Source of the DNA: an uncultured Bacteroidales bacterium
GTDB taxonomy: Bacteria; Bacteroidota; Bacteroidia; Bacteroidales; Muribaculaceae
NCBI GenBank assembly: GCA_902779125.1
Contig: CACZAC010000003.1
Coordinates: 82,726 to 146,725 of the forward strand
DNA: 64,000 bases
Direction: 5' to 3'
The translations under genes and the position numbers were made by a program. This document shows, in pieces, positions 25,580 through 49,462 of the stretch (its first letter is position 1; each line of letters begins with the position of its first letter). The notes under the pieces were generated by a model that saw only the letters and a list, made by a program, of their open reading frames with translations, did no database searches and was not told the origin of the DNA.

Positions 25580-28500
25580 ATGAAAAAAAGACTTCTTATG
25601 CTCTTGCTTGTCTTGTCTTGCGCCATTGTGAGCGTACAGGCATTGACGGTGAGAGGTACGGTCGTTGACCAGGTCAACGAGCCCGTGATCGGTGCTACCG
25701 TCAAGGTCCTGGGGACCACGATGGGTGCTGTCACCGACTTTGACGGCAACTTTGAGATTGCCAATGTTCCCGACGGCGCTACGCTGAAATTCACCTACAT
25801 GGGCATGCAAGCTGTGGAGATGAAAGCCAGTGAAATGATGAACGTCCAACTTATGGATGACGTGCGCAACCTTGACGAAGTGGTCGTTATCGGTTACGGT
25901 TCTGCACAGGCCAAAGACTTGACTGCCCCCATTGCCGTAGTCAAGGGCGAAGAACTGCTCGCCGTGCCCTCGTCATCTCCCATGGCCGCCATGCAAGGCA
26001 AGGTAGCCGGTGTGAACGTTGTCAACAGCGGTACTCCCGGTGAGGGCCCCAAAGTGCACATCCGCGGTAACGGTTCGTTCACCAGCGGCAGCCCGCTGTA
26101 TGTTGTTGACGGTATGTTCTATGACAACATCGACTTCCTGAACTCCAACGACATCGCCGACATGTCGGTACTGAAGGATGCGTCGGCAGCCGCCATCTAT
26201 GGTGTTCGCGCCGCCAATGGTGTTGTGCTGATTACTACCAAACACGGTAACAAAAACCAGCCTGCCAAGATTACCTACAACGGCTACGTCGGTATCCAGA
26301 AGGCTACCAACGTGCTGAAGATGGCCAACTCGAGCGAATATGCCACAATGCTGATGGAGGCCAATTACGATGCCTATGTATCGACGATGAAAGCCTCGAT
26401 TGACCGCTATGGTGGCAGCTATTCGGGCAACGACTTCCACAGTTGGACCTATGGCTCTGACACCGATTGGTACAAGGAATTGCTGCGCACAGCAATCATC
26501 ACCGACCACAGCCTGACCATCACCGGTGGTGGCGAGAAGGCCACCTACTCGCTGGGTATCAACTACCTGCATCAGGATGGTGTCATGAACGTGAAGAACT
26601 ACTACAGGCGCATGAACTTCCGTGCCGCCATCGACTACGAGGCCACCAACTGGCTTAAAGTCGGCTTCAACGGCATCTTCTCCAAGGGCAAGCAGCGCTC
26701 GCCCAACAATGCGGCATGGCAGCAGGCCTTCAACGCACCCGGCATCTATCCCGTGATGGATGAGAAGAACGATGCCACCTTCCCCACCCACTACGGCTCG
26801 CCCGAGTCGGTTGGCTTCACCAACAACTTCTACAATCCGGTTGCTACCGCCAACTACCAGAACAGCCAGAATGACATCAACAAGTATCTGACCAACTTCT
26901 ATGCTCAGATTACCTTCATTCCCAGCAAGTTGAACTTCAAGACCAGCTACTCCTATGACTACTCGGCCATCCACAACCGCACTTACTTGCCCGAGTACTA
27001 TGTGAGTTCCGTTCAACGCAACGACAAGTCATGGGTGAGCAAGACCGAGAGCACATACAACAACTGGATTTGGGACAACGTGCTGACCTATAAGGACACC
27101 TTCGGCGACCACAATGTGGGCGTAATGCTCGGTCACTCGCTGCGCGAGGACAAGTACAACTACCTGTACGGCATCGGCTACGGCATCGTGGACGGTGACG
27201 ACGCCTACAAGTACATCGGCATCAGCACCGACAGTGACAGCCGCCGCGCCAGCGATGGCGGTACACGCTATCGCAGCAACAGCTACTTTGGCCGTATCAA
27301 CTATGACTACATGGGCAAGTATCTGTTTATGGCCACCTTCCGTGCCGACGGTACCAGCAAGTACCAGGAGACCTGGGGCTACTACCCCTCGTTCGGTGCC
27401 GCTTGGGTCATGTCCAAAGAGGAGTTCATGGCTAACCAGAACGTCGTTGATTACCTGAAGTGGCGTGCCAGCTGGGGACGTCTGGGTAACAACGCTGTTC
27501 CTGCCAGCGACGGTTTCCGTTCTGTTTCGACGGGCACCTGGTCGTCGGGCGTGTTCGGCAACGCTACCATCGCCGGTTTCCAGAACAACAGCTACTTCAC
27601 CAACCTGAAGTGGGAAGTTGTTGACGAGACCAACGTGGGTGTTGAGTTCGCTACCCTGCGCAACCGCTTGAGCGTTGACATCGACTGGTTCTACCGCATG
27701 ACCCGCAAGGCCGTTATCGCACCGCGCCTGCCCTTCGAGAACGGCACGCTGCTGCAGAACATCGGTAAGATTCTCAACACCGGTGTTGACGTGAGCATCA
27801 ACTGGGCCGACCGCGTGGGCAACGACTTCAAGTACTACATCGGTGCCAACCTGTCCTATCTCAAGAACGAGGTCAAGAGCCTTGCCGGCAACCCCTACAT
27901 CGCTGGTGGCAAGACCTACCAGTTTGTGGGCAAGGAGATGAACTCGTTCTACGGCTACGTCGTTGAAGGCATCTATCAGACCGAACAGGAGTGTGCCAAC
28001 GACCGCACTGCTAAAGCCAACGGCCTGCAACCCGGTGACTTCAAGTACAAGGACCTGAATGGTGACGGCATCGTTGACGGTGAGGACCGCACTACCCTGG
28101 GCTCTTATCTGCCCAACTTCATCTACAGCATCAACCTGGGCTTCCAGTGGAAGAACCTGGACTTTGCTGTAACCACCTACGGCAACGCGGGTGCCCAGAT
28201 GTTCAACCGCAAGCGCGCCCTGCGTTATGCCCAGTCCAACTACAACTTTGACCACGACCAAGTGGCCAATCGCTGGACCGGTGCCGGCTCAACCAACAAG
28301 TATCCGTCGGCAGCAGGCTGGATTCGCGCTTGGAACGTGAGCGACCAGCGCGTGAACTCGTTCTTTGTTGAGGATGCCGACTTCTTCCGCATCCAGAACG
28401 TGACGCTGGGCTACACCTTCAGGAACATCAGGATGGGTAACTACACGCTTCCCTCGCTGCGCCTGAGTGCTACCGCCGACCGTCCTCTGACTCTGTTCAG

Positions 28501-28603
28501 CGCCCATGGCTTCACTCCCGAGTTGAGCGATCCCGAGGGTTGGGATACCGAGGTTTACCCGCTGACAGCGACCTACACCTTTGGTGTGACCATCGACTTC
28601 TAA
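25580..28603 (+). CDS. SusC/RagA TonB-linked outer-membrane transporter 1
   Basis: This 1007-residue protein is the TonB-dependent channel of a SusCD glycan importer. After the signal peptide (about 1-22) comes the carboxypeptidase-like domain (about 24-100, VRGTVVDQVNEPVIGATV to FTYMGMQ), then the plug, with GKVAGVNVVNSGTPGEG, the RGNGSF motif, YVVDGMFYD and VLKDASAAAIYGVRAANGV, then the barrel. It ends in an aromatic strand, YTFGVTIDF. The next gene, 37 bp on, is its SusD partner. No ECF-sigma signalling extension is present. Confidence 0.95.
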   Translation: MKKRLLMLLLVLSCAIVSVQALTVRGTVVDQVNEPVIGATVKVLGTTMGAVTDFDGNFEIANVPDGATLKFTYMGMQAVEMKASEMMNVQLMDDVRNLDEVVVIGYGSAQAKDLTAPIAVVKGEELLAVPSSSPMAAMQGKVAGVNVVNSGTPGEGPKVHIRGNGSFTSGSPLYVVDGMFYDNIDFLNSNDIADMSVLKDASAAAIYGVRAANGVVLITTKHGNKNQPAKITYNGYVGIQKATNVLKMANSSEYATMLMEANYDAYVSTMKASIDRYGGSYSGNDFHSWTYGSDTDWYKELLRTAIITDHSLTITGGGEKATYSLGINYLHQDGVMNVKNYYRRMNFRAAIDYEATNWLKVGFNGIFSKGKQRSPNNAAWQQAFNAPGIYPVMDEKNDATFPTHYGSPESVGFTNNFYNPVATANYQNSQNDINKYLTNFYAQITFIPSKLNFKTSYSYDYSAIHNRTYLPEYYVSSVQRNDKSWVSKTESTYNNWIWDNVLTYKDTFGDHNVGVMLGHSLREDKYNYLYGIGYGIVDGDDAYKYIGISTDSDSRRASDGGTRYRSNSYFGRINYDYMGKYLFMATFRADGTSKYQETWGYYPSFGAAWVMSKEEFMANQNVVDYLKWRASWGRLGNNAVPASDGFRSVSTGTWSSGVFGNATIAGFQNNSYFTNLKWEVVDETNVGVEFATLRNRLSVDIDWFYRMTRKAVIAPRLPFENGTLLQNIGKILNTGVDVSINWADRVGNDFKYYIGANLSYLKNEVKSLAGNPYIAGGKTYQFVGKEMNSFYGYVVEGIYQTEQECANDRTAKANGLQPGDFKYKDLNGDGIVDGEDRTTLGSYLPNFIYSINLGFQWKNLDFAVTTYGNAGAQMFNRKRALRYAQSNYNFDHDQVANRWTGAGSTNKYPSAAGWIRAWNVSDQRVNSFFVEDADFFRIQNVTLGYTFRNIRMGNYTLPSLRLSATADRPLTLFSAHGFTPELSDPEGWDTEVYPLTATYTFGVTIDF

Positions 28604-28640
28604 ATGAGCAATTACCAACAATCATAAAAGAAAAACGACA

Positions 28641-30089: not shown

Positions 30090-30112
30090 GTTTTACTTTT
30101 CATAATTCTATT

Positions 30113-30155: not shown

Positions 30156-30161
30156 AAAAAC

Positions 30162-32270
30162 ATGAAGCATTTCCTTGCCTTAATATTTATAATGTGCGCT
30201 GCCCTTGTCGCCAATGCCAGCAACGACTCGGTAAAAGTAGTCAAGGGCCAGGTGAGCGACTATTATATCCCCGTGGTTACCAATTATAGCGTGACAGGCA
30301 TGGTGACCGACGAACTGGGACAACCGCTTGAGGGCGCCACCGTGATGTGGCTCTACAGCCCAGCCCACAGCACTACCGATGACCAAGGCCGATTCTCTCT
30401 TATCGGAACCGACACCGACACGCTGCTGTGCATCCATTACCCCGGCAAGGAAATGACCGTGGTGACGCGCCGTAACGGCATGAGAGAAATCAACATATCC
30501 CTTGCCGACAAGACCAGTGGCAGCATTGCCGCCCCACGGCATAGAGCCCAAGCAACACGCTGGTATGACCCCCGCAACGCCACGACCATCACCTATTGCA
30601 ATCCTCTCAACATCAGCTACAACTATGAGCCCTGGAACAACAATACCCGCAATGGCGGGTCATTCCGCTCGTCGGCTGACCCCATGGCTCTGACTTATCA
30701 AGGCGAATACTTCCTGTTCTCGACCAACCAGGGCGGTTTCCACTACTCCCGCAACCTGAGCGACTGGGAGTTCTGCCAGGCCTCGTTCCAGCGCTACCCC
30801 ACCGATGACGACGAATGCGCCCCCGCAGCTTGGGTCGTGGGTGACACACTGTTTTACACAGGCTCTACCTATGAGGGTCTGCCCATCTGGTACTCCACCA
30901 ATCCCAAGAGCGGCCGTTGGCGCCGTGCCGTTGAGCGCAACACGCTGCCCACATGGGACCCGCACGTCTTTCTTGACGATGACGGGCGCCTGTACGAATA
31001 CTACGGCTCCAGCAACGAATATCCAATCAAGGGCGTTGAAATCAGCCGCGAAGACTTCACACCCATCAGCAAAATCCATGACCTGGTGCTGCTGCATCCT
31101 GACAAGCACGGTTGGGAGCGCTTCGGCATGAACAATGACGATGAGGTGACACTCAAGCCCTTCATGGAAGGTGCTTTTATGACCAAACACAACGGCAAGT
31201 ACTATATACAATATGGGGCGCCAGGCACCGAGTTCAAGGTGTATGCCGACGGCGTCTACGTGGGTGACCACCCGCTGGGACCGTTCACCTACCAGAGGCA
31301 CAATCCCATGAGTTACAAGCCCGGCGGATTTGTGCAGGGCGTGGGACACGGCGGCACATTTGCCGACCTTAAGGGGAACTATTGGCATGTGGGCACATGC
31401 ATGCTCTCGCTCAAGTACAAGTTTGAGCGCCGCATCGGGCTCTACCCCACCGCCTTTGACGCCGACGGCGTGATGTACTGTATCACAGCCTTCGGTGACT
31501 ACCCGCAATTGAATGCCGACAACGATATCTCTAACCCATCTGAACGCTTCACGGGGTGGATGCTGCTCTCCTATGGAAAGCCCTGTACCGTATCGAGTTG
31601 CGACAGCACCTTGACAGCTGCCAGCCTCACCGATGAGAACATGCGCACCTATTGGAGCGCCGCCAGTGGCAGCGACCAGGAGTGGATTGAGATGGACTTG
31701 GGCGGAACACGTGAGGTGCGCGCCATACAACTCAACTACTATGACCACAAGACGGTTCAGCACAACCGTGCCAACGACATCTACTACCAGTACCGCATCC
31801 TTGCCAGCGATGACGGCAAGCACTGGACCCTGGTAGTGGACAAGAGTGACAACGACCGTGATGTACCGCACGACTATATTGAACTGCGCGAGCCGATTGA
31901 TACCCGTTACCTGCGCATCGAGAACCTGCACATGCCCTCAGGTGGCTATTTCTGCCTCAGCGAGGTGCGGGTATTCGGCCTGGATTATAACGGCAACCAA
32001 CTCACCGCCGTCAAAAAATTCTCCGTCAAGCGCGATAAGAACGACCGCCGCAATGCTATGATTACATGGGCTGCTACTGAAGGAGCCTACGGCTACAATA
32101 TCTATTATGGCATCGCTCCCGATAAGCTGTACCATTGCATCACCGTCAATGGTGACACGCAATATGATATGCGAGGTCTGGACTTGGAGACCGATTATTA
32201 CTTCGCAATCCAAGCCCTGGGCGAAACGGGCTGCGGTCCTTGTTCCAAAACCGTAAAAATCAACCATTAA
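30162..32270 (+). CDS. GH43-like beta-propeller enzyme with discoidin and FnIII domains
   Basis: The 702-residue secreted protein has a signal peptide (about 1-19), a carboxypeptidase-regulatory-like beta domain (about 40-115, VTGMVTDELGQPLEGATV), a five-bladed propeller (about 140-460), an F5/8-type C (discoidin) domain (about 470-615), and an FnIII-like domain to the end. GH43-type acids can be placed: D in SADPMAL, D in WDPHVFLDDDG and E in PFMEGAFM. The GH43 call is by fold pattern. A xylan or arabinan enzyme would be odd in a beta-glucan locus, so the true activity may differ. Confidence 0.75.
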   Translation: MKHFLALIFIMCAALVANASNDSVKVVKGQVSDYYIPVVTNYSVTGMVTDELGQPLEGATVMWLYSPAHSTTDDQGRFSLIGTDTDTLLCIHYPGKEMTVVTRRNGMREINISLADKTSGSIAAPRHRAQATRWYDPRNATTITYCNPLNISYNYEPWNNNTRNGGSFRSSADPMALTYQGEYFLFSTNQGGFHYSRNLSDWEFCQASFQRYPTDDDECAPAAWVVGDTLFYTGSTYEGLPIWYSTNPKSGRWRRAVERNTLPTWDPHVFLDDDGRLYEYYGSSNEYPIKGVEISREDFTPISKIHDLVLLHPDKHGWERFGMNNDDEVTLKPFMEGAFMTKHNGKYYIQYGAPGTEFKVYADGVYVGDHPLGPFTYQRHNPMSYKPGGFVQGVGHGGTFADLKGNYWHVGTCMLSLKYKFERRIGLYPTAFDADGVMYCITAFGDYPQLNADNDISNPSERFTGWMLLSYGKPCTVSSCDSTLTAASLTDENMRTYWSAASGSDQEWIEMDLGGTREVRAIQLNYYDHKTVQHNRANDIYYQYRILASDDGKHWTLVVDKSDNDRDVPHDYIELREPIDTRYLRIENLHMPSGGYFCLSEVRVFGLDYNGNQLTAVKKFSVKRDKNDRRNAMITWAATEGAYGYNIYYGIAPDKLYHCITVNGDTQYDMRGLDLETDYYFAIQALGETGCGPCSKTVKINH

Positions 32271-32284
32271 CCAATAAGCATAAT

Positions 32285-33658
32285 ATGAACAAGACTATCT
32301 TGAAATACCTCGCACTCGTGCTGCTGTTGACATTCAGCAGCTGCAAGAATAACGGCGAGAAATCACCTGCCAACGAAGAGCCCCAAACTTCTACCGAGCA
32401 GGGCCGGCCCGCTTCGTTTGCCAATGATGATGCCTTGCTGGACTACATCGAGCGCGTCCATTTCAATTACATGTGGGATGGCGCCGAGCCCACGTCGGGG
32501 ATGGCCTGCGAGCGCATCCATCTCGACGGGGACTATCCCGAACATGACCAGGACGTGGTGACAACGGGCGGGAGCGGATTTGGCATCGCTGGACTCGTGG
32601 TAGCCATGGAACGCGGTTTCATCACCCGCGACCAGGGCATCGAACGGCTGAACCGCATCGTTGGATTCCTGGAACGCGCCGACCGATTCCATGGCGTTTG
32701 GCCCCACTGGCTGCATGGTCCCTCAGGAAAAGTGAAACCTTTCGGCAAAAAAGACAATGGCGGCGACCTGGTAGAGAGCTGTTTCCTGATGCAGGGTCTG
32801 CTTTGCGCCCGCCAGTACCTCAATCGCGACACCGAAGCCGAAAAAAGCCTGGTCAATCGCATCAATGGCCTGTGGCAAGGCATGGAGTTTGACTGGTACA
32901 CCCGTGGTGGTCAGGATGTTATCTATTGGCACTGGTCACCTGAATATGAATGGGAGATGAATTTTCCGCTCGAGGGCTATAACGAGTGCCTCATCGTGTA
33001 TGTGCTGGCAGCAGCCTCGCCTACACACAGCGTTCCCGCCTCCTGCTATCATAAGGGCTGGGCACGCAGTGGCGGCATCAAGAGCAACGCAGCCCCCTAT
33101 GGCTATCCTCTAGAACTCAAGCACAACGGTGCCGAACAGACGGGCGGTCCGTTGTTCTGGGCACATTACAGCTGGATTGGGCTCAATCCCAAGGGTTTGA
33201 AAGACCAGTATGCTGACTACTGGAACGTTGTGCGCAACCACGCCATGAGCAATTATCAATACTGTGTTGACAATCCCAAGCACTATAGCGGCTACGGTCC
33301 CGACTGCTGGGGTTTGACCGCCAGCTATTCGACTGAGGGCTATTCGGCGCACAGCCCCGGCAATGACCTGGGCGTGATTACGCCCACAGCGGCATTGTCG
33401 TCGTTCCCCTATACACCCGAGCAGTCTATGGCTGCCCTCAAGGGCTTCTATGCCCGCGGTGAGTCAATATGGGGAAAATATGGCTTCTATGATGCTTTTA
33501 GCCCTGTGAGCGGATGGACATTGCCTCGCTACTTGGCCATAGACCAGTGCACCATAGCTCCGATGATAGAGAATTACCGCACGGGGCTGCTGTGGCGGCT
33601 GTTCATGAGTTGTCCCGAGGTGCAGCAAGGGCTTGAGAAACTGGGATTTACCCATTAA
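32285..33658 (+). CDS. GH144 family endo-beta-1,2-glucanase lipoprotein
   Basis: The protein has 457 residues from the ATG at 32285; the open frame starts 45 bases earlier inside the GH43-like gene, which is unlikely. A lipobox (LTFSSC) marks it as a lipoprotein. The sequence matches the glucoamylase-like/GH144 family, with DVVTTGGSGFGIAGLVVAMERGF, KKDNGGDLVESCFLMQGLL, IYWHWSPEYEW, GPLFWAHYSWIGLNPKGLKD and the terminal PMIENYRTGLLWRLFMSCPEVQ. The characterised founding activity of GH144 is endo-beta-1,2-glucanase. Other beta-glucan linkages cannot be excluded. Confidence 0.88.
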   Translation: MNKTILKYLALVLLLTFSSCKNNGEKSPANEEPQTSTEQGRPASFANDDALLDYIERVHFNYMWDGAEPTSGMACERIHLDGDYPEHDQDVVTTGGSGFGIAGLVVAMERGFITRDQGIERLNRIVGFLERADRFHGVWPHWLHGPSGKVKPFGKKDNGGDLVESCFLMQGLLCARQYLNRDTEAEKSLVNRINGLWQGMEFDWYTRGGQDVIYWHWSPEYEWEMNFPLEGYNECLIVYVLAAASPTHSVPASCYHKGWARSGGIKSNAAPYGYPLELKHNGAEQTGGPLFWAHYSWIGLNPKGLKDQYADYWNVVRNHAMSNYQYCVDNPKHYSGYGPDCWGLTASYSTEGYSAHSPGNDLGVITPTAALSSFPYTPEQSMAALKGFYARGESIWGKYGFYDAFSPVSGWTLPRYLAIDQCTIAPMIENYRTGLLWRLFMSCPEVQQGLEKLGFTH

Positions 33659-37770: not shown

Positions 37771-38138
37771 ATAAGCATAAGAACAATGATTTTTGCAAAA
37801 TTAAGAGAAATTAATGAGAAAATGGGATAATAAAGTCAGAATATTCGATGAAACCGTAGTTTTAATGTTTTCAGTAGGACTACATTTGAACCACTTTTTA
37901 ACGATTATTGGTTTTTAATAAAATTATGATTATCAGATATTTACAAATTATTTACATTCAAAAACATCCACTTTTTTGTTTTTGATGCCCAGAACACCTT
38001 ATTTTATTATATATTTTTGCAATCGTAACTCATGCGAGAAAGCAGAAAAATGGATTAACCTCTCTGCAACAGACCCAAATCAACCACTGAATGAAATAAC
38101 TATTCAATATTTATTATTTAACCAATTAACAATGTGAC
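37771..38138. promoter_or_regulatory. Divergent control region of regulator and susC2
   Basis: This 368-base AT-rich gap has a minus-strand -7 element TAATTTTG at 37796-37803 for the regulator and a plus-strand TATTTTTG at 38012-38019, 120 bases before the second susC gene. The leader is long. No conserved operator is recognisable by eye. Confidence 0.55.
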
Positions 38139-41100
38139 ATGAAAGAGAAAAGATTACTTTCACTGCTGTTGACAGTCATACTGTCCATAGCAGCCTTTGC
38201 ACAAAATCAGACCTTCACGGGTATCGTCGTTGATTCCAGCGGCGAACCGGTGATTGGTGCCACGATTGTGCAAAAGGGTACGTCTAACACGACTGTGACC
38301 GATTTAGACGGCAGTTTTTCAATCACCTGCCCGGCAGGAGCCGAGCTGGAGATTAGTTTTGTGGGCTATGGCAAGCAGACCGTGCTCGCCGGCAATAACA
38401 TGCACGTCACCATGACCGAAGACTCCGAGATGCTCAACGAGCTGGTTGTCATCGGTTACGGTGTGCAGAAGAAGAGCGTCGTGACAGCGTCGATTGCCAA
38501 GGTATCTTCGGAAGACCTGGCAGGCAAGAGCCGTCTGCGTGCTGAGGATGCCTTGAAGGGTATGGCCGCAGGTGTCAACGTCACCTCGTCTTCGGGTCAG
38601 CCCGGTTCACAGTCAATGATTCGTATCCGTGGTATTGGAACCATCAACAATTCCAATCCCCTTTACATTATTGACGGTATGCCCACTGACCAGTATGGTA
38701 TGGAAAGCGTGAACCCCAACGACATCGAGAGCATCGAGGTGCTGAAGGATGCCGCTTCGGGTGCCATCTACGGTGCACGCGCTGCCAACGGTGTTATCCT
38801 CGTAACGACCAAGAAGGGTAAAATGGGCCGCGCCAGCATCAACTACGACTTCTCCTATGGCTGGCAGAGCGCTTGGAGAAAGCGTGACGTGACCGGCGCC
38901 ACCGACTATGCTATCCTGCAGAACGAGCGCCGCATGCAGAACGGTCTTTCTCCGCTCTATGCTGATCCCTACAACCTTACTGATGCCAACGGTGACAAGA
39001 TCGTCGGCTTCGGTACCGACTGGCAGAAACTGCTCTTCAACGACAATGCTCCCATTATGCAGCATGACGTGAGCATCAGCGGTGCCTCCGAGAAAGTGAA
39101 CTACTACTTGTCGCTGGGTTACTTCACCCAGGACGGTATCGTGGGCGGTAACTACGGCCAGTCGAACTACGACCGTCTGACCATCCGTGCCAACAATATG
39201 TTCAACCTCATCGACGCTACCAAAGAGCGCAATTTCCTGAACAAACTTGACCTGGGTGCCAACCTTTCTTACATGCGTGTACACAGCACTGGCATCGAGG
39301 CTAACTCCACTTGGGGCTCTCCCCTGGGTTCTGCCCTCTATCTGGCTCCCACCCTGCCCGTCACCTTGAGAGGTACCGCGGCAAATGAGATGATCAAACG
39401 TTATAGTGCATATGACCTCTACTACGACGAGAACGGTGATCCTTATACTATCCCCGGCTTTATCGGCAGCTATCAGGAGCAGAACAACCCCATCGCTATG
39501 ATGCACGGCAACCCCAACAAGAACTGGAGCCACAAGTTCATGCCCAAGTTCTCTGTTGACCTGCAATTGTGGGATGCTCTGAAGTACCACTTCACCTACA
39601 GCGCCGAGCTCTCGTTCTGGGGCTACAATGGCGCTATCCTGCAGGAGTACTACCTCTCGGGTAACAACAATGCCGACCACACCGAGGCAAGTGCCTTCAA
39701 GGGCAACAACAACACCTGGCAGATTGAAAACACCATTACTTATGACAAGACCTTCGGCAAGCACACCATCGGTGTTGTGCTCGGCCAGAGTGCCTTGAAG
39801 TTCAAGGGTGACGAGCTGGGTGGTTCACACTGGTATCTTGTAAATCCCAATAAGCCCAGTATCAACTACACCACTGGTGGTGACATTGAAATCTCTACCG
39901 ATGCCGACGGCAAGATGACTGGTGCAACGAGCCTCGTTGGCGTTTGGGGTGGTCCCTACACCGAGCACCGCTTGTCGTCTATGTTTGCCCGTCTGAGCTA
40001 CAACTACGACGAGCGCTACATGTTCCAAGCCACCGTTCGCCGTGACGGTTCGAGCCGTTTCGGTTCCAACCACAAGTATGGTATCTTCCCCTCATTCTCA
40101 GTAGGTTGGAATATCATGAACGAGAAATTCATGGAAGACAGCCACGATTGGCTGAACATGCTGAAGCTGCGCGCCAGCTGGGGTAAGAACGGTAACGACA
40201 ACATCGGTGACTTTGCTTACACCACACTGACTGCTATGGGTAACACCAGCAACTACTACTTCGGACAGACCGCAGCCATGGTTTACGGCTCCAAGGCCAA
40301 CCGCCTGGCTAACGAGGACCTGAAGTGGGAGGAGAGCGAACAGACCGACTTCGGTATCGACTTCGGCTTCTGGAACAACAAGCTGACCTTCAGCGTTGAT
40401 TACTATATCAAGAAGACCAACGGCATGATTATTGAGATGCCGATTCCCAGTTACGTCGGTGAGGCTCGTCCTCTGGCCAACGTCGGTGACATGCAAAACA
40501 GCGGTATCGAGTTTGAGCTCGGTTACAGGTGGAACATCGGCGATGCACACTTCTCATTGAGGGGTAATGCCTCTTACCTGAAGAACAAGCTGAAAAACCT
40601 GGGTAACGACACCGGTTTCCTGAACTACGGCATCAGCCAGTTCAGTGACGGCGGCACTCGTGCCGAGAACGGACAGCCGTTCCCCTTCTTCTATGGTTAC
40701 AAGACCGATGGTATCCTGCAGACCAAGGCCGAGGCCGAGGCCTACAATAGCAAATACGGTACCGAATCAAAGCCTGGCGACTTCCGCTTCCTGGACACCA
40801 ACGCCGACGGCAAGATCAACAGCGACGACCGCACCAACATCGGTAACGGTGTGCCCGACTGGACCTTTGGTCTTAACTTCGACTTTGACTGGAAGGGCTT
40901 TGACCTGGGCGTATTCTTCCAGGGCGTGCATGGCGCCGACATCTTCGACGCCACCTATCGTCAGGACATTGCCTCAGGTAACTATCCCACTTGGGTACTC
41001 CAGCGTTGGACTGGTGAAGGCACCAGCAACACTGTGCCCACTCTGGGCGACTCCAAGAACTGGGTGTGCAGCGACATGTATATCCAGGACGGCAGCTATC

Positions 41101-41327
41101 TGCGTCTGAAGAACCTCACCCTCGGCTACACCTTGCCCACCTTCTTGACTAACAAGATTGGCATCAGCCGCCTGCGCATTTATGGTCGTGCCGAGAACCT
41201 CTTTACCTGGACCAAGTACTGGGGCTTTGATCCTGAGATCGGTTCTGGTGCTACCAGCCTCGGTGTTGACTATGGTATCTATCCTCAGGCCCGCACCTAC
41301 TCAGTTGGCTTTAATGTATCATTCTAA
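38139..41327 (+). CDS. SusC/RagA TonB-linked outer-membrane transporter 2
   Basis: The 1062-residue protein has a signal peptide (about 1-22), a carboxypeptidase-like domain (TFTGIVVDSSGEPVIGATI to FVGYGKQ), a plug with GVNVTSSSGQPGSQ, IRGIGTINNSNPLYIIDGMP and VLKDAASGAIYGARAANGV, and a barrel ending in aromatic YSVGFNVSF. It is clearly different in sequence from SusC 1, so the pair is not a recent duplication. Its SusD partner follows after 23 bp. Confidence 0.95.
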   Translation: MKEKRLLSLLLTVILSIAAFAQNQTFTGIVVDSSGEPVIGATIVQKGTSNTTVTDLDGSFSITCPAGAELEISFVGYGKQTVLAGNNMHVTMTEDSEMLNELVVIGYGVQKKSVVTASIAKVSSEDLAGKSRLRAEDALKGMAAGVNVTSSSGQPGSQSMIRIRGIGTINNSNPLYIIDGMPTDQYGMESVNPNDIESIEVLKDAASGAIYGARAANGVILVTTKKGKMGRASINYDFSYGWQSAWRKRDVTGATDYAILQNERRMQNGLSPLYADPYNLTDANGDKIVGFGTDWQKLLFNDNAPIMQHDVSISGASEKVNYYLSLGYFTQDGIVGGNYGQSNYDRLTIRANNMFNLIDATKERNFLNKLDLGANLSYMRVHSTGIEANSTWGSPLGSALYLAPTLPVTLRGTAANEMIKRYSAYDLYYDENGDPYTIPGFIGSYQEQNNPIAMMHGNPNKNWSHKFMPKFSVDLQLWDALKYHFTYSAELSFWGYNGAILQEYYLSGNNNADHTEASAFKGNNNTWQIENTITYDKTFGKHTIGVVLGQSALKFKGDELGGSHWYLVNPNKPSINYTTGGDIEISTDADGKMTGATSLVGVWGGPYTEHRLSSMFARLSYNYDERYMFQATVRRDGSSRFGSNHKYGIFPSFSVGWNIMNEKFMEDSHDWLNMLKLRASWGKNGNDNIGDFAYTTLTAMGNTSNYYFGQTAAMVYGSKANRLANEDLKWEESEQTDFGIDFGFWNNKLTFSVDYYIKKTNGMIIEMPIPSYVGEARPLANVGDMQNSGIEFELGYRWNIGDAHFSLRGNASYLKNKLKNLGNDTGFLNYGISQFSDGGTRAENGQPFPFFYGYKTDGILQTKAEAEAYNSKYGTESKPGDFRFLDTNADGKINSDDRTNIGNGVPDWTFGLNFDFDWKGFDLGVFFQGVHGADIFDATYRQDIASGNYPTWVLQRWTGEGTSNTVPTLGDSKNWVCSDMYIQDGSYLRLKNLTLGYTLPTFLTNKIGISRLRIYGRAENLFTWTKYWGFDPEIGSGATSLGVDYGIYPQARTYSVGFNVSF

Positions 41328-42910: not shown

Positions 42911-44854
42911 ATGATTACCAAGATAAACAAAATAAGCAGCGCAATAGCAATCCTGTTATTGGCTATGGCTTTCACTGCCTGCTCGCCCGATAGTTTCAAC
43001 GGCGCAGACCCTGACGGCATCCCTACTGTCAGCGGTGTCGACTTCAATATCACGGTTGACCAGGAAACCAACCAGATGACTGCCACCTACACTCCAGAAC
43101 CGGGCACCTATCCCGTCTGGATTCTTGACGGCACATCCTACTCCACCCTGCAGGAAGTGGGTTACAAGAACAGCGAGGCCGGTACTCACACCATCGAGCT
43201 GCGCCTGGGCAACCGCAACGGCATCAGCCAGACTGGTATCAAGAAGGAATATACCTTTAATGAGTCGAAGATTGACTATAGCAATGACTTCCGTCGCATC
43301 GCCAATAAAGAATGGCGCATCGACCACAAGGAAGTGGCCCACATGGCCTGCGGTCCTGCCGGTACTGCTGGTACAGGATGGTGGTCGGCTCAGCCCGATG
43401 AGAAGAAGGCCTTCGGTGTGTATGACGACCGCCTCATTTTCTCTGCCGATAACCTCAAGGGTGGCGCTTTCACCTACAATTCAGGTGTAGATGGCCTTAC
43501 CTATGTAAACAAGGGTACCACCAAGTGGGGCGCTCCCACGAATGATGACTGGGATGCTGTCGTCGTTGACGGCAACGGCGAGCAGATTTCCAGCTGGAGC
43601 TTCGAAGTGTATGACTGGGAAGATGCTGACGGCAACGTGACCAAGCAGACCTATATTCAGCTCGCCCCCAACACTGCTTTCCCCTATATCAGCTCCGATG
43701 AACAGTACGAGAACCCGCGCTTCCGCATCGAGTCTCTGACGGCCAAGAAGATGGTGCTCATTTATGAGCCTAAAAATCGCAGCATCGCATGGCGCTTCAT
43801 CTTCACCAGCGATCCCGAGGAGAAGGGATTCTTCGGTTTCGACGCCAACAGCGACTTCAACATGTGGAAGAACGTGGACTACAACATGTTCTTCTGGTAC
43901 GCTCCAGGCTGGAACCAGATTGCTGACCCGACCTTCGAGAGTGGAGACAATGACTATAGCGTATACCTGCCCGAGGCTACAACCGACCAGTGGCAGGCTC
44001 AGATGGCCTTCAAGACCACCAACATCACGACCTCGGCCGACAAGAACTATGACTTCTCTTGCATCCTGAACAGCGACAAGGACCTGAATGGTGTCACCGT
44101 GAAGCTCGTGATGGATGGCGACGACAACGTCTTCTACTTTGCTGACCGTATCGACCTGAAGGCAGGCGAGGATTATGTCTTCTGGAAGAGCGACATGCCT
44201 GGTATCGACATGGAGCGTGTTAACCTGTTCTTCGACTTCGGTGGCTGTCAGGCTGGAACGACCGTCAACATCTATAACATTGTGCTCAAGGACCATGCCA
44301 ACGACGACGGCACCGTGCTGCCCGTTATCCCCGATGAGCCGCCTGTAGAATGGGTTGACGTGAATTCTCCCGACAACCTGGGTGCCGGTTTCAATACCGC
44401 AGGTACCATGACTTTCTGGTGGGCTGATGCAAGTTGGGGCCAGATTGCCGACCCGACCTTCACTTATGCCAACGGCGTATATACCATTAAGGCTGACAAT
44501 GCTACCGTGGCTGAGTGGCAGGCCCAGTGCGCTATCAATGGCGTGCCCCTGCACATCGAGAAGGGCCAGGCCTATGACGTACGTGTTACCATCACCACCA
44601 ACATGGAGCTGCCACGTGCCACCGTCAAGGTCAACAAGGATCCTGACGTGACCAATGACCCCAACACGCTGTGCTACAAGGGTGACTTCTATCTCGAAGA
44701 TGGCGAGAACGTGCTCCAGATCGTTAACGTCATTGCTAAGAATGGTGAGGATCAGATTGAGTTTGACCAGGGCAAGTTCATTTTGGACTTCGGTGGCTGT
44801 CCCGCCGGATTTGAGGCCAAGGTCAGCAACATCATCATCCAAAAGCACAAGTAA
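42911..44854 (+). CDS. Surface glycan-binding lipoprotein with duplicated module
   Basis: The 647-residue lipoprotein (lipobox AFTAC) sits where SusE/SGBP-B proteins sit. A PKD-like domain (about 40-105) leads. The C-terminal half holds two homologous modules, at about 313-460 and 485-645. Each contains an FW(Y/W)A...W-x-QIADPTF opening, a QWQAQ or EWQAQ strand and an FDFGGC(Q/P)AG closing motif. They look like beta-sandwich carbohydrate-binding modules of CBM4/CBM9 type. The conserved Trp and Tyr residues suggest binding platforms. It has no catalytic residues and is probably outer-leaflet anchored. Confidence 0.82.
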   Translation: MITKINKISSAIAILLLAMAFTACSPDSFNGADPDGIPTVSGVDFNITVDQETNQMTATYTPEPGTYPVWILDGTSYSTLQEVGYKNSEAGTHTIELRLGNRNGISQTGIKKEYTFNESKIDYSNDFRRIANKEWRIDHKEVAHMACGPAGTAGTGWWSAQPDEKKAFGVYDDRLIFSADNLKGGAFTYNSGVDGLTYVNKGTTKWGAPTNDDWDAVVVDGNGEQISSWSFEVYDWEDADGNVTKQTYIQLAPNTAFPYISSDEQYENPRFRIESLTAKKMVLIYEPKNRSIAWRFIFTSDPEEKGFFGFDANSDFNMWKNVDYNMFFWYAPGWNQIADPTFESGDNDYSVYLPEATTDQWQAQMAFKTTNITTSADKNYDFSCILNSDKDLNGVTVKLVMDGDDNVFYFADRIDLKAGEDYVFWKSDMPGIDMERVNLFFDFGGCQAGTTVNIYNIVLKDHANDDGTVLPVIPDEPPVEWVDVNSPDNLGAGFNTAGTMTFWWADASWGQIADPTFTYANGVYTIKADNATVAEWQAQCAINGVPLHIEKGQAYDVRVTITTNMELPRATVKVNKDPDVTNDPNTLCYKGDFYLEDGENVLQIVNVIAKNGEDQIEFDQGKFILDFGGCPAGFEAKVSNIIIQKHK

Positions 44855-44932
44855 CAGTTGCCAGCTATCAGTTGTCAGTTGAGTGCGGACTCCGTTTACA
44901 ACTGACAACTGAAAACTGAAAACTAGAAACTG
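44855..44932. repeat. Facing heptamer arrays forming a hairpin
   Basis: The left arm is four 7-base units of type cagttgN from 44855. The right arm is five units of type NNaactg (44898-44932). The central arms CAGTTGTCAGTTG (44869-44881) and CAACTGACAACTG (44899-44911) are perfect 13-bp complements around a 17-base loop. It fills the gap before the GH16 gene. No U-run follows. Confidence 0.8.
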
Positions 44933-44938
44933 AAGAAA

Positions 44939-46045
44939 ATGAAACGTACTATGCTTTATACTCTATTGCTTTCTCTCACCGTAGCCCTCATGGGCTGCGG
45001 TGGGGACGGCAAAGACGAGCCCAAGCCCAGTAATGTGACAATCACTGTCTCGCAGGAGAATATCGCTGTTCCTGCCAATGGCGGCACTTATTCCCTCAAC
45101 GTCAGCACGACAGGCAAGGAATGGGGCGCATATGCCGACCAGGACTTCGTCACCGTTGAAACGAAGAACTCCACTTCGCAATCGGGAGTACTCACTGTCA
45201 CAGTGGCTGCCAACCCGATGACCAGTGTCCGCACCAGTACCGTCACCATTATGTCGGGGTCTGCACGCAAAAACATCGAAGTCACGCAGGAAGCTGCCGC
45301 CGAGTCGGCCTACTATGCCCCTGAGGGTTACAGCCTGGTTTGGCACGATGAGTTTGACAAGGGCTCGGAATTGAATGCCGATGACTGGAGGCACGAGGTA
45401 CAGAACAGCGGATGGGTAAATCACGAGTTGCAGAATTATGTGAACCACAAGACTCCCGAGGGACGTCTTGTCACCGAAATCCGTGACGGCAAGCTTTGCA
45501 TTACCGCACTCAAGGAGAACGGCAAGATTTACTCGGGACGCGTGTATGCCAAGGACAAACAGGGCTGGAAGTATGGCTATATCGAGGCCAGCATCAAGTT
45601 GCCCAAGGGCAAGGGAACGTGGCCTGCCTTCTGGATGATGCCAGTGAATTTCCATTCCTGGCCCGCTGACGGCGAAATAGATATCATGGAAGAGGTGGGT
45701 TACCACCCCGACTTTGTATCGTCAAGCCTGCACGCCAACGCGCATGTTCACTCCAACGGCACTCAAGTGACCCATGAGATGTATTGCAAGGGCGCTGAGG
45801 GCGAGTTCCACACCTATGGCATCGAATGGACAGACAAGAACATTACCACCTATGTGGACGGTAAGGTGCAACTGAGCTACGACAACCGTGGCCTGGGCCG
45901 CGACGACTGGCCCTATGACGATCCGTTCTACGTCATCTTCAACCTTGCTTGGGGTGGTGACTGGGGTGGCGCCCAAGGTGTTGACGAGAGCGCCCTGCCC
46001 GTTACCATGGAAGTGGACTACGTGCGCGTGTTCCAAAAGAAGTAA
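44939..46045 (+). CDS. GH16 endo-beta-glucanase (laminarinase type) lipoprotein with BACON domain
   Basis: The 368-residue lipoprotein (lipobox ALMGC) has a BACON domain (about 30-118, VTITVSQENIAVPANGGTY to EVTQEAA) and a GH16 domain (about 125-368). The catalytic motif is E246-I-D248-I-M-E251 in DGEIDIMEEVG, preceded by WPAFWMMP. The extra Met between D and E marks the laminarinase/beta-bulge type, so beta-1,3- or mixed beta-1,3/1,4-glucan is the expected substrate. It probably acts at the cell surface. Confidence 0.93.
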   Translation: MKRTMLYTLLLSLTVALMGCGGDGKDEPKPSNVTITVSQENIAVPANGGTYSLNVSTTGKEWGAYADQDFVTVETKNSTSQSGVLTVTVAANPMTSVRTSTVTIMSGSARKNIEVTQEAAAESAYYAPEGYSLVWHDEFDKGSELNADDWRHEVQNSGWVNHELQNYVNHKTPEGRLVTEIRDGKLCITALKENGKIYSGRVYAKDKQGWKYGYIEASIKLPKGKGTWPAFWMMPVNFHSWPADGEIDIMEEVGYHPDFVSSSLHANAHVHSNGTQVTHEMYCKGAEGEFHTYGIEWTDKNITTYVDGKVQLSYDNRGLGRDDWPYDDPFYVIFNLAWGGDWGGAQGVDESALPVTMEVDYVRVFQKK

Positions 46046-46066
46046 CCGTTTAACTCAAATGACTCT

Positions 46067-49000
46067 ATGAGAGATTCTTTATTAGTCATACTCTCTCTTA
46101 TTGTTGCCTTGGGGCTTCATGCCAAGCCTCAAGGCAATTTTGTCCGTGTGGAAGGTCACGACCTGATACAACCAAACGGAGAAAAGCTTTATATACAAGG
46201 TACGAATTTAGGCAACTGGCTCAACCCTGAAGGCTACATGTTCGGCCTGAGCAAGACCAACTCGCCGTGGATGATTGACCTGATGATTAAGGAGGCCGTA
46301 GGGCCTGACTTCGCCGCCGACTTTTGGCGAAAGTTCAAGGATAACTACATCACCCGTGCCGACATCAGTTTTATCGCTCGTCAAGGGGCGAACACCATCC
46401 GCCTGCCTTTCAACTACAGGCTCTTTACCGACGAGGACTATATGGGACGCTCCAAGGATCAGGATGGATTTACCCGCATCGACTCGGTGGTGAACTGGTG
46501 CCGTGCCGCAGGGCTCTATCTGATTCTGGACATGCACGACTGCCCTGGCGGCCAGACCGGCGACAACATCGATGACGGCCATGGCTATCCGTGGCTGTTT
46601 GAGAGCGAGCCCAGCCAACAGTTGTTCATCGACATCTGGCAGCGCATCGCCGCCCGCTACAAGGACGAGCCCGTGATTCTCGGCTATGAACTGATGAATG
46701 AGCCGATTGCCCACTACTTTGAGAACAAGGAGGAACTGAACAAGAAACTCGAGCCCCTGTATATGCGTACAGTCAAAGCAATCCGCCAAGTGGACCCCAA
46801 CCACGTGATACTGCTGGGTGGAGCCCGCTGGAACTCTGATTTCTACATGTTCAGCGACTGGAAGTTTGATGACAACATCATGTACACCTGCCACCGCTAT
46901 GGTGGTGACGCCACTGCCGAGGCTATCAAGGATTACATTGACTTCCGCGACAAGACCGGCTTGCCGATGTACATGGGCGAAACCGGGCACAACAGCAACG
47001 AGTGGCAAGCGCAGTTAGTCAACGTGATGAAAAATGCCAACATCGGCTATACGTTCTGGCCCTATAAGAAAATCGACAACTCTTGCATGATGGGCATCAC
47101 CAGGCCCGAAATGTGGGACAGCATTGTCGTGAAGTATTCCGAGGCTCCCCGTACCACCTATCAGGAAATGCGCGAGGCCCGCCCCGCCCAGGAGACCTTC
47201 GGCAAGCTGCTGATGCAGTATGCCGAGAACAGCCGCTATGAGCACTGCACCCCGCAGATGGATTACATCCAGTCGCTGGGAATGACACCGCAGATGCCCC
47301 TCTATCTTGATGAGACCTTACCCATCGAGACGCGTGTTGAGGACGCCTTGTCACGCATGACACTCGATGAGAAGATTGCCGTTATCCATGCCCAGAGCAA
47401 GTTTTCTTCTCCTGGCGTGAAACGCCTGGGATTTCCTGACTTCTGGACCGATGACGGACCTCACGGCGTGCGTCCCGATGTCCTGTGGGACGAATGGGAG
47501 CAGGCTGGCCAGACCAACGACTCGTGTGTAGCGTTCCCCGCTCTGACTTGTCTCGCCGCTTCATGGAACCCCGTGCTTGCCAAGCTTTATGGCCGCAGCC
47601 TGGGTGAGGAAGCACGTTACCGCGGTAAGGACATGATTTTGGGACCTGGCGTGAACATCAACCGCACACCGCTGAACGGCCGTAACTTTGAGTACATGGG
47701 CGAGGACCCGCTGCTGGCGTCACGCATGGTAGTGCCCTACGTTCAAGGTCTGCAAAGCACGGGCACGTCGGCATGCGTCAAGCACTTCTGCTTGAACAAT
47801 GACGAGGAATACCGCCATCAGGTCAATGTCATCGTGAGCGACCGCGCGCTGCGCGAAATTTACCTGCCCGCATTCGAGGCTGCCGTCAAGGAGGGCCACA
47901 CATGGGGCATCATGGGCTCCTATAACCTGTACAAGGACCAGCACTGCTGCCAAAACCAGTACACGCTCAACCAGATTCTGAAAGGCGAATGGCAGTATGA
48001 CGGCGTGGTGGTCAGCGACTGGGGTGGCGTGCATGACACCGAGATGGCTGTCAAGAACGGGCTGGACATGGAGTTCGGCAGCTGGACTGACGGTCTGGCG
48101 TGGGGCGCCAGCAACGCCTACGACGCCTACTACATGGCAAAGCCCTACAAGCAGCTCATTGAACAGGGCAAGTTCACGACCAGCGAACTTGACGAGAAGG
48201 TGAGACGCGTGTTGCGCCTTTTCTACCGCACCACAATGAACAGCAAGCGCGCTCAGGGCTTCCTGTGCAGCGAGGCGCACTACGATGCAGCGCTGAAGAT
48301 TGCCCAGGACGGTATCGTGCTGCTGCAGAACAAGCGCAATGTCCTGCCTATCGACGTGAACAACGCCAAGCGCATCCTGGTTGTCGGCGAGAACGCCATC
48401 AAGATGATGACCGTGGGCGGCGGCAGCAGTTCACTCAAGGCACAGCATGAGATTCTGCCTCTCGAGGGCCTCAGGACCCGCCTGGAGGGTACCGGCATCG
48501 AGGTGGACTATGCCCGCGGCTATGTGGGCGACACGACAGGCGAGTACAACGGCGTGGTGGCGAAGCAATCGTTGGCTGAGAACCGCCCTGCCAGCGAACT
48601 GATTGCCGAGGCTGTTGCCAAGGCTCAGGGCGCTGACTATGTCATCATCTTCGGCGGTCTGAACAAGAGCGATTACCAGGATGCTGAGGGCCATGACCGC
48701 AAACACATGGATATGCCCTACGGTCAAGACGCGCTTGTCGAGGCATTGGCCCGTGTGAACAAGAATGTCGTGTTTGTCAACATCTCGGGCGACGCTGTGG
48801 CTATGCCCTGGCGTGACAAGGTGGCATCCATCGTGCAGGGCTGGTTCATCGGCAGCGAGACGGGCAAGGCATTTGCCAGCATCCTCGTGGGCGACGTGAA
48901 CCCCTCGGGCAAACTGCCATTCACCTGGTACCAGAACCTCAACGACGTGGGCGCTCATGCCCTGGGTGCCTACCCCGGCACTTGGCGCGATGACCACAAA

Positions 49001-49462
49001 ATCATCGATGAGGAGTATAAGGAGGGCATCTATGTGGGTTACCGTTGGGCCGACAAGCAGAAAAAGAAACCCGCTTTTGCCTTCGGCCACGGATTGAGCT
49101 ACACAACCTTCGTTGTGAGCAACCTGCGCATCGACAAGCGTGAAGTTGCCGCCGATGGCACCGTGACCGCTACTGTGACCGTCAAGAACACCGGTAACCG
49201 CGCCGGAGCCGAGGTCGTTCAGCTCTACGTGAGCGACCACAACGCCACAGTCGAAATGCCCGTTAAGGAGTTGCGAGGTTTCCAAAAAGTTACCTTGAAG
49301 CCCGGCGAGAGCCGTGATGTCACCATCACCATCGGAGGACGTGCGTTCCAGTACTGGGATGAAGCCAAGGGCGACTGGGCTACTTCGCTCGGCCAGCGCA
49401 CGATGCTCGTGGGCACAGCCAGCGACAACCTTCCCCTCAAGGCAACCTTCACGGTGCGTTGA
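46067..49462 (+). CDS. GH5-GH3 bifunctional beta-glucan hydrolase
   Basis: This 1131-residue secreted protein has a signal peptide (about 1-19). A complete GH5 domain (about 22-380) has acid/base E212 in ELMNEPIAHY and nucleophile E305 in MYMGETGHNS. A complete GH3 domain (about 395-1131) has nucleophile D651 in VVVSDWGGVHD and a C-terminal FnIII-like end. The HDCPGGQTGDN segment resembles exo-beta-1,3-glucanase-like GH5 members. The fusion joins a first cut to glucose release in one chain. The region between the domains (about 370-415) is short, and there is no frameshift. It is the last gene of the PUL. Confidence 0.92.
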   Translation: MRDSLLVILSLIVALGLHAKPQGNFVRVEGHDLIQPNGEKLYIQGTNLGNWLNPEGYMFGLSKTNSPWMIDLMIKEAVGPDFAADFWRKFKDNYITRADISFIARQGANTIRLPFNYRLFTDEDYMGRSKDQDGFTRIDSVVNWCRAAGLYLILDMHDCPGGQTGDNIDDGHGYPWLFESEPSQQLFIDIWQRIAARYKDEPVILGYELMNEPIAHYFENKEELNKKLEPLYMRTVKAIRQVDPNHVILLGGARWNSDFYMFSDWKFDDNIMYTCHRYGGDATAEAIKDYIDFRDKTGLPMYMGETGHNSNEWQAQLVNVMKNANIGYTFWPYKKIDNSCMMGITRPEMWDSIVVKYSEAPRTTYQEMREARPAQETFGKLLMQYAENSRYEHCTPQMDYIQSLGMTPQMPLYLDETLPIETRVEDALSRMTLDEKIAVIHAQSKFSSPGVKRLGFPDFWTDDGPHGVRPDVLWDEWEQAGQTNDSCVAFPALTCLAASWNPVLAKLYGRSLGEEARYRGKDMILGPGVNINRTPLNGRNFEYMGEDPLLASRMVVPYVQGLQSTGTSACVKHFCLNNDEEYRHQVNVIVSDRALREIYLPAFEAAVKEGHTWGIMGSYNLYKDQHCCQNQYTLNQILKGEWQYDGVVVSDWGGVHDTEMAVKNGLDMEFGSWTDGLAWGASNAYDAYYMAKPYKQLIEQGKFTTSELDEKVRRVLRLFYRTTMNSKRAQGFLCSEAHYDAALKIAQDGIVLLQNKRNVLPIDVNNAKRILVVGENAIKMMTVGGGSSSLKAQHEILPLEGLRTRLEGTGIEVDYARGYVGDTTGEYNGVVAKQSLAENRPASELIAEAVAKAQGADYVIIFGGLNKSDYQDAEGHDRKHMDMPYGQDALVEALARVNKNVVFVNISGDAVAMPWRDKVASIVQGWFIGSETGKAFASILVGDVNPSGKLPFTWYQNLNDVGAHALGAYPGTWRDDHKIIDEEYKEGIYVGYRWADKQKKKPAFAFGHGLSYTTFVVSNLRIDKREVAADGTVTATVTVKNTGNRAGAEVVQLYVSDHNATVEMPVKELRGFQKVTLKPGESRDVTITIGGRAFQYWDEAKGDWATSLGQRTMLVGTASDNLPLKATFTVR

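What the first reader, a model, noticed from the sequence alone, without database searches (positions are those of the whole stretch)
25580..49462. Double beta-glucan utilisation locus with two unlike SusCD pairs around one membrane regulator
Two PUL halves sit head-to-tail around one divergent DUF6377/SusR-like gene. The first (SusCD, GH43-like, GH144, GH3) points to beta-1,2-glucan. The second (SusCD, binding lipoprotein, GH16, GH5-GH3) points to beta-1,3 or mixed-linkage glucan. The two SusC proteins differ strongly, so this is not a duplication. One regulator may coordinate uptake of two glucan linkages, which would be unusual.
Basis: partly seen in the sequence, partly recalled or inferred. 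Interest (0 to 1): 0.7.

Follow-up and report, generated by a model that had tools for sequence, protein, structure and literature searches.

The report
Two neighbouring, separately wired glucan loci
A rumen-type Bacteroidales bacterium carries two sugar-polymer uptake gene sets side by side, one for beta-1,2-glucan and one for beta-1,3-glucan; the regulator between them appears to belong to the second only, while the first seems to have lost its own switch.

Summary
The gene layout is real. Window 25580-36018 is a beta-1,2-glucan locus (SusC-SusD-GH43-GH144-GH3); 36115-49462 is a SusR-type beta-1,3-glucan locus (divergent regulator, SusC-SusD-SGBP-GH16-GH5/GH3). The central claim, one regulator coordinating both, is not supported. 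Among 61 genomes of the genus the regulator's orthologue (72% identity or more) is in 23 of the 25 with a close second-half binding protein and in none of the other 36; 14 genomes have GH144 without it, 10 have it without GH144. A candidate operator (CCACTTTTT twice, exactly 77 bp apart, a spacing published for SusR sites) precedes the second SusC in 22 of 22 genomes and the first SusC in none of 23. In many other Bacteroidales the first half has its own adjacent Reg_prop-type regulator; where that gene is divergent, GTAGT repeats precede SusC (21 of 21 loci). Most of the window's clade lacks both. The first half is therefore a regulatory orphan: constitutive, controlled from elsewhere or, not excluded, captured by the neighbouring SusR through an unrecognised site. 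The pair is adjacent in 8 of 17 resolvable genomes, in two orders. Both parts are members of known kinds; open points are what controls the first half and why a GH43 accompanies GH144.

The parts
25516..25523 (+). predicted promoter -7 box of SusC1 (TATATTTG)
   Evidence: a TAnnTTTG box 57-82 bp before SusC1 in 12 of 12 clade upstreams compared
25580..28603 (+). SusC1, TonB-dependent transporter of the beta-1,2-glucan PUL
   Evidence: NCBIfam TIGR04056
28641..30089 (+). SusD1
   Evidence: Pfam SusD_RagB
30162..32270 (+). GH43 with N-terminal CarboxypepD_reg-like, F5/8C and (weakly) fn3 domains; signal peptide by eye, probably periplasmic
   Evidence: Pfam; D173, D266, E336 invariant in 56 of 56 aligned homologues; AF2 mean pLDDT 84.9 and GH43 fold matches
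32240..33658 (+). GH144 endo-beta-1,2-glucanase, lipoprotein (likely start 32285)
   Evidence: Pfam PF10091; best PDB 5gzk/5gzh, the latter named endo-beta-1,2-glucanase, 633 bits
33745..36018 (+). GH3 beta-glucosidase, BglX type, periplasmic signal peptide by eye
   Evidence: NF011678 921 bits; PDB 3u48, 5tf0, 5xxl above 1000 bits
36046..36081 (+). terminator-like hairpin after the first half
   Evidence: 14 pairs, 8 GC; 1 found, shuffles mean 1.8
36115..37770 (-). SusR-family membrane regulator (DUF6377)
   Evidence: NCBIfam NF058541 498.3 bits, cut-off 480; Pfam PF19904
37891..37899 (+). candidate SusR operator, upstream copy (CCACTTTTT)
   Evidence: 22 of 22 genomes
37968..37976 (+). candidate SusR operator, downstream copy (CCACTTTTT), 77 bp from the first
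   Evidence: spacing 77 in 22 of 22 genomes; spacer only 53% identical on average
38012..38019 (+). predicted promoter -7 box of SusC2 (TATTTTTG)
38139..41327 (+). SusC2, transporter of the beta-1,3-glucan PUL
   Evidence: TIGR04056
41351..42883 (+). SusD2 (SGBP-A)
   Evidence: Pfam SusD_RagB
42911..44854 (+). SGBP-B-like surface glucan-binding lipoprotein
   Evidence: PDB 7kwb BtSGBP-B 364 bits in three stretches; lipobox by eye
44939..46045 (+). GH16 laminarinase-like lipoprotein with BACON domain
   Evidence: Pfam; PDB 8va4 338 bits, then beta-1,3(4)-glucanases and laminarinases
46067..49462 (+). GH5-GH3 fusion, periplasmic signal peptide by eye
   Evidence: Pfam; GH3 part 8va7 993 bits; GH5 part best 9ku5 130 bits and CelC 102 bits

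Best explanation
Two autonomous polysaccharide utilisation loci lie side by side. Second half: GH16 and SGBP on the cell surface cut and hold beta-1,3-glucan (laminarin type), SusCD imports oligosaccharides, and periplasmic GH5-GH3 finishes them. The SusR-like membrane protein senses a product and activates its own neighbouring operon through two CCACTTTTT boxes 77 bp apart. First half: surface GH144 cuts beta-1,2-glucan, SusCD imports, and periplasmic GH43 and GH3 finish. In many Bacteroidales relatives this operon is served by an adjacent, usually divergent Reg_prop-type membrane regulator acting, by inference, on GTAGT repeats. In most of the window's clade that gene and those repeats are both gone, so the first half runs from its own promoter without a recognisable local switch. 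Shown here: gene content, co-occurrence, motif presence or absence, and spacing. Inferred: substrates, localisation, that the motifs are the regulators' binding sites, and the regulatory outcome.
For: Genus survey (61 genomes, own included, in each): GH144 in 27, regulator orthologue (72% identity or more) in 23, both in 13; GH144 without regulator 14, regulator without GH144 10; regulator in 23 of 25 genomes with an SGBP of 80% identity or more and in 0 of the other 36. Candidate operator in 22 of 22 SusC2 upstreams at exactly 77 bp, spacer 53% identical; SusR-like sites are predicted at 67 or 77 bp in Bacteroides (PMC3878776, passages). Own genome: one perfect pair, at SusC2, plus one two-mismatch pair on contig C68, backward-pattern control 0. 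Clade SusC1 upstreams (12) score -25 to -11, within their shuffles, against 47 to 61 at SusC2 (22). Reg_prop orthologue (55% or more) in 10 of 61 genomes, each with GH144 and without the SusR-like orthologue. A Reg_prop relative lies upstream of SusC1 in 32 of 57 scorable loci, divergent in 21. At least two GTAGT in 21 of 21 loci with the divergent gene, against 3 of 18 without any such gene and 3.9% of random pieces. Closest structures: endo-beta-1,2-glucanase, BtSGBP-B, laminarinases.
Against: No expression or binding data. The two loci are adjacent in 8 of 17 genomes where this could be judged, in two orders, more than expected of unrelated loci, and this could reflect co-selection or co-control. 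All 8 adjacent cases lack the Reg_prop gene beside SusC1, but so do 8 of the 9 separate ones. In the genus sample 13 of 14 genomes with a first half of about 90% SusC1 identity or more and no Reg_prop gene carry the SusR-like orthologue (exception G163, whose SusC1 is called as a 342-aa ORF), as capture would predict. GTAGT repeats occur without a recognised Reg_prop relative in L091, L118 and L125, and 7 of the 11 loci with a same-strand, distant Reg_prop relative have fewer than two copies, so the gene-repeat pairing is clear only for the divergent form. The score matrix was trained on the SusC2 sites and cannot see a differently built site. Genomes are mostly drafts, so absences may be gaps.
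Confidence: 0.77

Rival explanations
1. The SusR-like regulator has captured the first half after the loss of its Reg_prop regulator and now coordinates both glucans, through an operator unlike the 77-bp pair or through looping from the SusC2 site.
For: The first half in most of this clade lacks the usual regulator and repeats, the two loci are adjacent in 8 genomes in two arrangements, and 13 of 14 such genus genomes, plus 5 of 5 further clade genomes tested, carry the SusR-like orthologue.
Against: No exact CCACTTTTT in 12 of 12 clade SusC1 upstreams, one one-mismatch copy; no 8-mer repeats at 65-68 or 76-78 bp there; the own-genome scan finds the perfect pair only at SusC2; at least 5 genus genomes keep the two loci apart, also without Reg_prop; the regulator occurs in 10 genus genomes without GH144.
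Confidence: 0.13
2. The first half is controlled in trans by another, unlinked regulator; adjacency to the second half only stores two glucan loci in one island.
For: Own promoter with a TAnnTTTG box and modest conservation just upstream of it in 15 clade sequences; no regulator gene shared by the flanks of the separated loci that were looked at.
Against: No candidate regulator or defined operator was found; the upstream conservation may simply be the promoter.
Confidence: 0.35
3. Where the first half lies downstream of the second (G170, G178, G191, G153), read-through from the SusR-controlled operon gives coordinate expression.
For: Same strand, gap of about 200-305 bp.
Against: The first half keeps a promoter box there; in the window the first half lies upstream and faces the convergent regulator gene, with a hairpin between, so this cannot act in the window.
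Confidence: 0.1

Closest known systems
Bacteroides beta(1,3)-glucan utilisation loci (1,3GUL; Dejean et al. 2020, PMC7157763, passages seen)
   Same: SusC, SusD (SGBP-A), SGBP-B, GH16 and GH3; the legend of its Fig. 1 lists a SusR-like sensor-regulator among the annotations
   Different: Carries a GH5 fused to GH3 and no GH158; the regulator is SusR-like, while the text describes HTCS regulators for B. uniformis, B. thetaiotaomicron and B. fluxus
GH144 beta-1,2-glucan PULs (Lapebie et al. 2019, PMC6499787, passages; an SGL gene cluster of B. thetaiotaomicron cited in PMC8861115, passages)
   Same: SusCD-type PUL with GH144 and a beta-glucosidase
   Different: Includes a GH43 (as does B. xylanisolvens XB1A, L120) and lacks the Reg_prop regulator found beside SusC in many relatives
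SusR-like regulons of Bacteroides (Ravcheev et al. 2013, PMC3878776, passages seen)
   Same: SusR-family membrane regulator with a direct-repeat site, 67 or 77 bp apart, upstream of its operon
   Different: Linked here to a predicted beta-1,3-glucan locus rather than starch or dextran; box sequences were not compared, since the alignments are in supplements I did not see

Membership tests
SusR-family glycan regulator | Matches the curated family model | tested here: met
   NF058541 498.3 bits, cut-off 480
SusR-family glycan regulator | Direct-repeat site with 67 or 77 bp between boxes at the target | tested here: met
   77 bp in 22 of 22 SusC2 upstreams; published spacing in PMC3878776
SusR-family glycan regulator | Binds its sugar and activates the operon | not testable with these tools
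   needs expression or binding data
beta(1,3)-glucan utilisation locus | Syntenic SusC, SusD, SGBP-B and GH3 core plus GH16 or GH158 | tested here: met
   core as described in PMC7157763
beta(1,3)-glucan utilisation locus | Growth and induction on laminarin | not testable with these tools
   no culture or expression data
GH144 beta-1,2-glucan PUL | GH144 endo-beta-1,2-glucanase with SusCD and a beta-glucosidase | tested here: met
GH144 beta-1,2-glucan PUL | Reg_prop-type regulator beside SusC, as in 32 of 57 scorable relatives (not required of the PUL type) | tested here: not met
   absent beside SusC1 and no match in the own genome at E 1e-60
One regulon spanning both halves | Shared operator upstream of both SusC genes | tested here: not met
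One regulon spanning both halves | Regulator presence linked to both halves across genomes | tested here: not met
   14 of 27 GH144 genomes lack the orthologue and 10 of 23 regulator genomes lack GH144; within the window's own clade the link is close (13 of 14)

The most novel reading that the evidence does not exclude
Regulatory orphaning followed by capture: in this clade the beta-1,2-glucan PUL lost its cognate sensor and its operator repeats, was more than once placed beside a SusR-controlled beta-1,3-glucan PUL, and is now switched by the neighbour's SusR through an unrecognised site or left constitutive, so that one glucan cue primes uptake of another linkage.
Probability: 0.15. Interest if true: 0.6.

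Novelty: new member of a known kind. Interest (0 to 1): 0.36.

Why it matters
It gives two concrete, testable gene-and-site pairings for glucan uptake in rumen Bacteroidales (SusR-like gene with a 77-bp CCACTTTTT pair; divergent Reg_prop gene with GTAGT repeats). It also shows a natural case where a PUL appears to have lost sensor and site together yet keeps its GH43, GH144 and GH3 at 83% identity or more to the window in the loci that lack them. The steady GH43 beside GH144 (GH144 found in at least 68 of 80 GH43 loci) hints that the natural beta-1,2-glucan-type substrate carries a decoration, or that this GH43 has an activity not yet assigned.

Tried and rejected
Tandem duplication of one PUL: rejected, SusC 31% and SusD 28% identical. 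Inactive GH43 acting as a binding protein: not preferred, because the three candidate catalytic residues are invariant in 56 of 56 sequences (their roles rest on the alignment and on recall). The first AF2 model of GH43, from 7 sequences, was poor (pLDDT 43.4); 56 sequences gave 84.9, but structural neighbours are spread over xylosidase, arabinofuranosidase, arabinanase and galactanase entries, so the substrate stays open. Rfam over 25000-50000: nothing at gathering score. Papers naming 8va4/8va7: the search returned one unrelated paper. Papers holding GH43, GH144 and PUL: 7 listed, passages of one seen. SusR with direct repeat and spacer: one paper. GH144 with transcriptional regulator and SusC: one, unrelated. 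The tree of GH43+GH144 leaves the window's clade of 16 rows an unresolved fork, so the number of losses of the Reg_prop gene and of origins of adjacency cannot be fixed. That PDB 5xxl is B. thetaiotaomicron BT_3567 is recalled, not from a call.
Full report
What is there. Half 1 is SusC1, SusD1, a multidomain GH43, GH144 and a BglX-type GH3; half 2 is SusC2, SusD2, an SGBP, GH16 and a GH5-GH3 fusion. Both run on the + strand with a SusR-family regulator on the - strand between them. SusC1/SusC2 share 31% and SusD1/SusD2 28% identity. The island is flanked by a NadD-like gene (24647-25243, -) and an outer-membrane efflux/AcrB pair (49754-54242, -), which are not PUL genes.

Substrates. GH144 is closest to a solved endo-beta-1,2-glucanase over its catalytic domain (633 bits). 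GH3 is closest to beta-glucosidases. The SGBP matches BtSGBP-B; a protein of that name bound beta-1,3-glucans while its migration was unaffected by mixed-linkage glucan in Dejean et al. 2020 (PMC7157763, passages). The GH16 is closest to 8va4, followed by beta-1,3(4)-glucanases and laminarinases. So beta-1,2 for half 1 and beta-1,3 for half 2 are the best readings; mixed-linkage use by half 2 is possible. The GH5 part matches 9ku5 (130 bits) and CelC (102 bits) best, with exo-beta-1,3-glucanases further down. Signal peptides and lipoboxes were read by eye.

Who belongs with whom. The genus was sampled at 61 genomes, own included, in six searches. GH144: 27 (one, G167, a 58% fragment). GH43: 26, all among the GH144 genomes; the exception, G153, lacks GH43. 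Regulator orthologue at 72% identity or more: 23; further matches in that search are a 44% one in G158 and paralogues at 29-32%. SGBP at 80% or more: 25, of which 23 have the regulator; the other two, G194 and G197, are 83% and 57% complete. G158 has a diverged SGBP (60%) with its diverged regulator. Both halves with regulator: 13. GH144 without the regulator: 14 (G163, G160, G198, G151, G155, G190, G173, G017, G109, G174, G159, G122, G182, G167). Regulator without GH144: 10. The regulator is therefore a part of half 2.

Arrangement. From 55 fetched stretches (annotated): half 1 - regulator - half 2, as in the window, in G180 and G186, and in RUG12992 (L113); half 2 - half 1 head to tail in G170, G178, G191 and G153, with gaps of about 200-305 bp (the regulator is at the start of half 2 in the first three; in G153 it is on another contig). 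Half 1 is flanked on both sides by other genes, so apart from half 2, in G201, G156, G154, G169 and G166, and in L095, L098, L102 and L140, whose genomes have the regulator. G179 is cut by a contig end. With the window that is 8 adjacent of 17 resolvable. Clustering is recurrent but not needed for either locus.

The SusR-type operator. Upstream of SusC2, 22 of 22 available genomes carry CCACTTTTT twice at exactly 77 bp, with a TAnnTTTG promoter box 44-45 bp after the second copy, start to start. The 68-bp spacer is only 53% identical on average (231 pairs), and 6 of 4400 shuffled upstreams hold any perfect 9-mer repeat at 77 bp. Ravcheev et al. 2013 predicted SusR-like sites as direct repeats with 67 or 77 bp between centres (PMC3878776, passages). 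In the own genome (90.67% complete) the only perfect pair is at window 37891/37968; one pair with two mismatches lies on contig C68, and the backward-read control gave none. Upstream of SusC1 no exact box occurs in 12 clade genomes, 8 Reg_prop genomes or 3 others; one of the 12 has a one-mismatch TCCACTTTTT. Matrix scores there lie within the shuffles. In the wider set of 57 SusC1 upstreams two (L109, L116) have a copy on one strand or the other.

Half 1's usual regulator. In 8 of the 14 genus genomes with half 1 and without the SusR-like orthologue, a divergent protein of about 950 aa lies next to SusC1; 7 of these were scanned and 7 of 7 match Pfam Reg_prop. In G155 and G159 the orthologue is on another contig; G163, G122, G182 and G167 have none at that level. 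Its full copy ends in a LuxR-like helix-turn-helix by eye; the profile libraries returned only weak matches there. Orthologues at 55% identity or more are in 10 of 61 genus genomes, none of which has the SusR-like orthologue; 14 of 61 have some match at E 1e-60, the rest at 25-28% identity. Across Bacteroidales, 80 of 100 GH43 relatives found were kept; GH144 was found in 68 of the 80 loci, an undercount, since L106 is a known GH144 genome that my ORF caller missed. Of 57 loci with a scorable SusC1 start, a Reg_prop relative is upstream of SusC1 in 32 (21 divergent at 38-100% identity; 11 on the same strand at 24-36%, which may be other regulators), elsewhere in the locus in 3, absent in 18, and the contig ends too soon in 4. 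Among loci with SusC1 at 91% identity or more, 11 lack it, 1 has it (L102) and 1 is cut off.

Co-loss of switch and site. At least two GTAGT (+ strand, 450 bp) precede SusC1 in 21 of 21 loci with the divergent gene, 4 of 11 with the same-strand gene, 3 of 18 with none (L091, L118, L125), and 3.9% of 2280 random pieces. Restricted to SusC1 above 70% identity this is 10 of 10 against 1 of 14. In the first sample CGTAGT on either strand was in 7 of 8 against 0 of 12, and GTAGT in 8 of 8 (41 copies) against 6 of 12 (7 copies). L102, a member of the window's clade, keeps gene and repeats, and its genome also has the SusR-like orthologue (78%). L112 likewise has a Reg_prop gene beside half 1 and a 46% SusR-like gene elsewhere. 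So both kinds of regulator can coexist in one genome, each beside its own PUL where that could be seen.

What follows. Half 1 in the window has a promoter box of its own (25516-25523) and a hairpin behind it (36046-36081) but no recognisable regulator. Whether it is constitutive, driven by an unlinked regulator, or captured by the SusR-like protein cannot be decided from sequence. Ten proteins flanking half 1 in seven loci were scanned: one, downstream in G201, is a SpoIIE-type signalling protein, four had no Pfam match, and none recurs as a regulator.

GH43. The model (pLDDT 84.9) and the profile confirm a GH43 catalytic domain, with top structural neighbour BT_3662 at 17% identity. Its company with GH144 from Bacteroides, Segatella and Prevotella to Prolixibacteraceae and Paludibacter suggests a role in the beta-1,2-glucan pathway that the sequence does not name.

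Source. Near relatives bear titles of uncultured Bacteroidales, Prevotellaceae or Muribaculaceae, several from rumen or omasum; the nearest, RUG14590 (L088), has a GH43 98% identical. The window's own record is not named.

Noticed in passing
window 8189-10519 (-) and 10629-12308 (-): Two neighbouring genes, an S8 subtilase and a GH53, each end in a dockerin type I domain, which I did not expect in a Bacteroidales genome.
   Followed up: no
window 46067-49462; L071 6277-9810; L082 6721-10247: The GH5-GH3 fusion is two separate ORFs in G158 and G095, where the diverged SusR-like gene lies downstream on the same strand; in G171, G184, G194 and G179 the search matched only the GH3 part.
   Followed up: partly
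L040 13376-14401: In G163 the half-1 SusC is called as only a 342-aa ORF, and neither regulator orthologue was found in that genome.
   Followed up: no
L120 (Bacteroides xylanisolvens XB1A): A Reg_prop - SusC - SusD - GH43 - GH144 - GH3 locus in a named complete genome, with 3 GTAGT before SusC; a convenient test bed for half 1.
   Followed up: partly
L118, L125: Four GTAGT each before SusC but no recognised Reg_prop relative in the locus; unidentified ORFs of 853 and 874 aa lie upstream on the same strand.
   Followed up: no
L083, L084 (own genome C16, C29): Two further SusR-like genes in the window's genome, 30-37% identical to this one; their targets were not examined.
   Followed up: no
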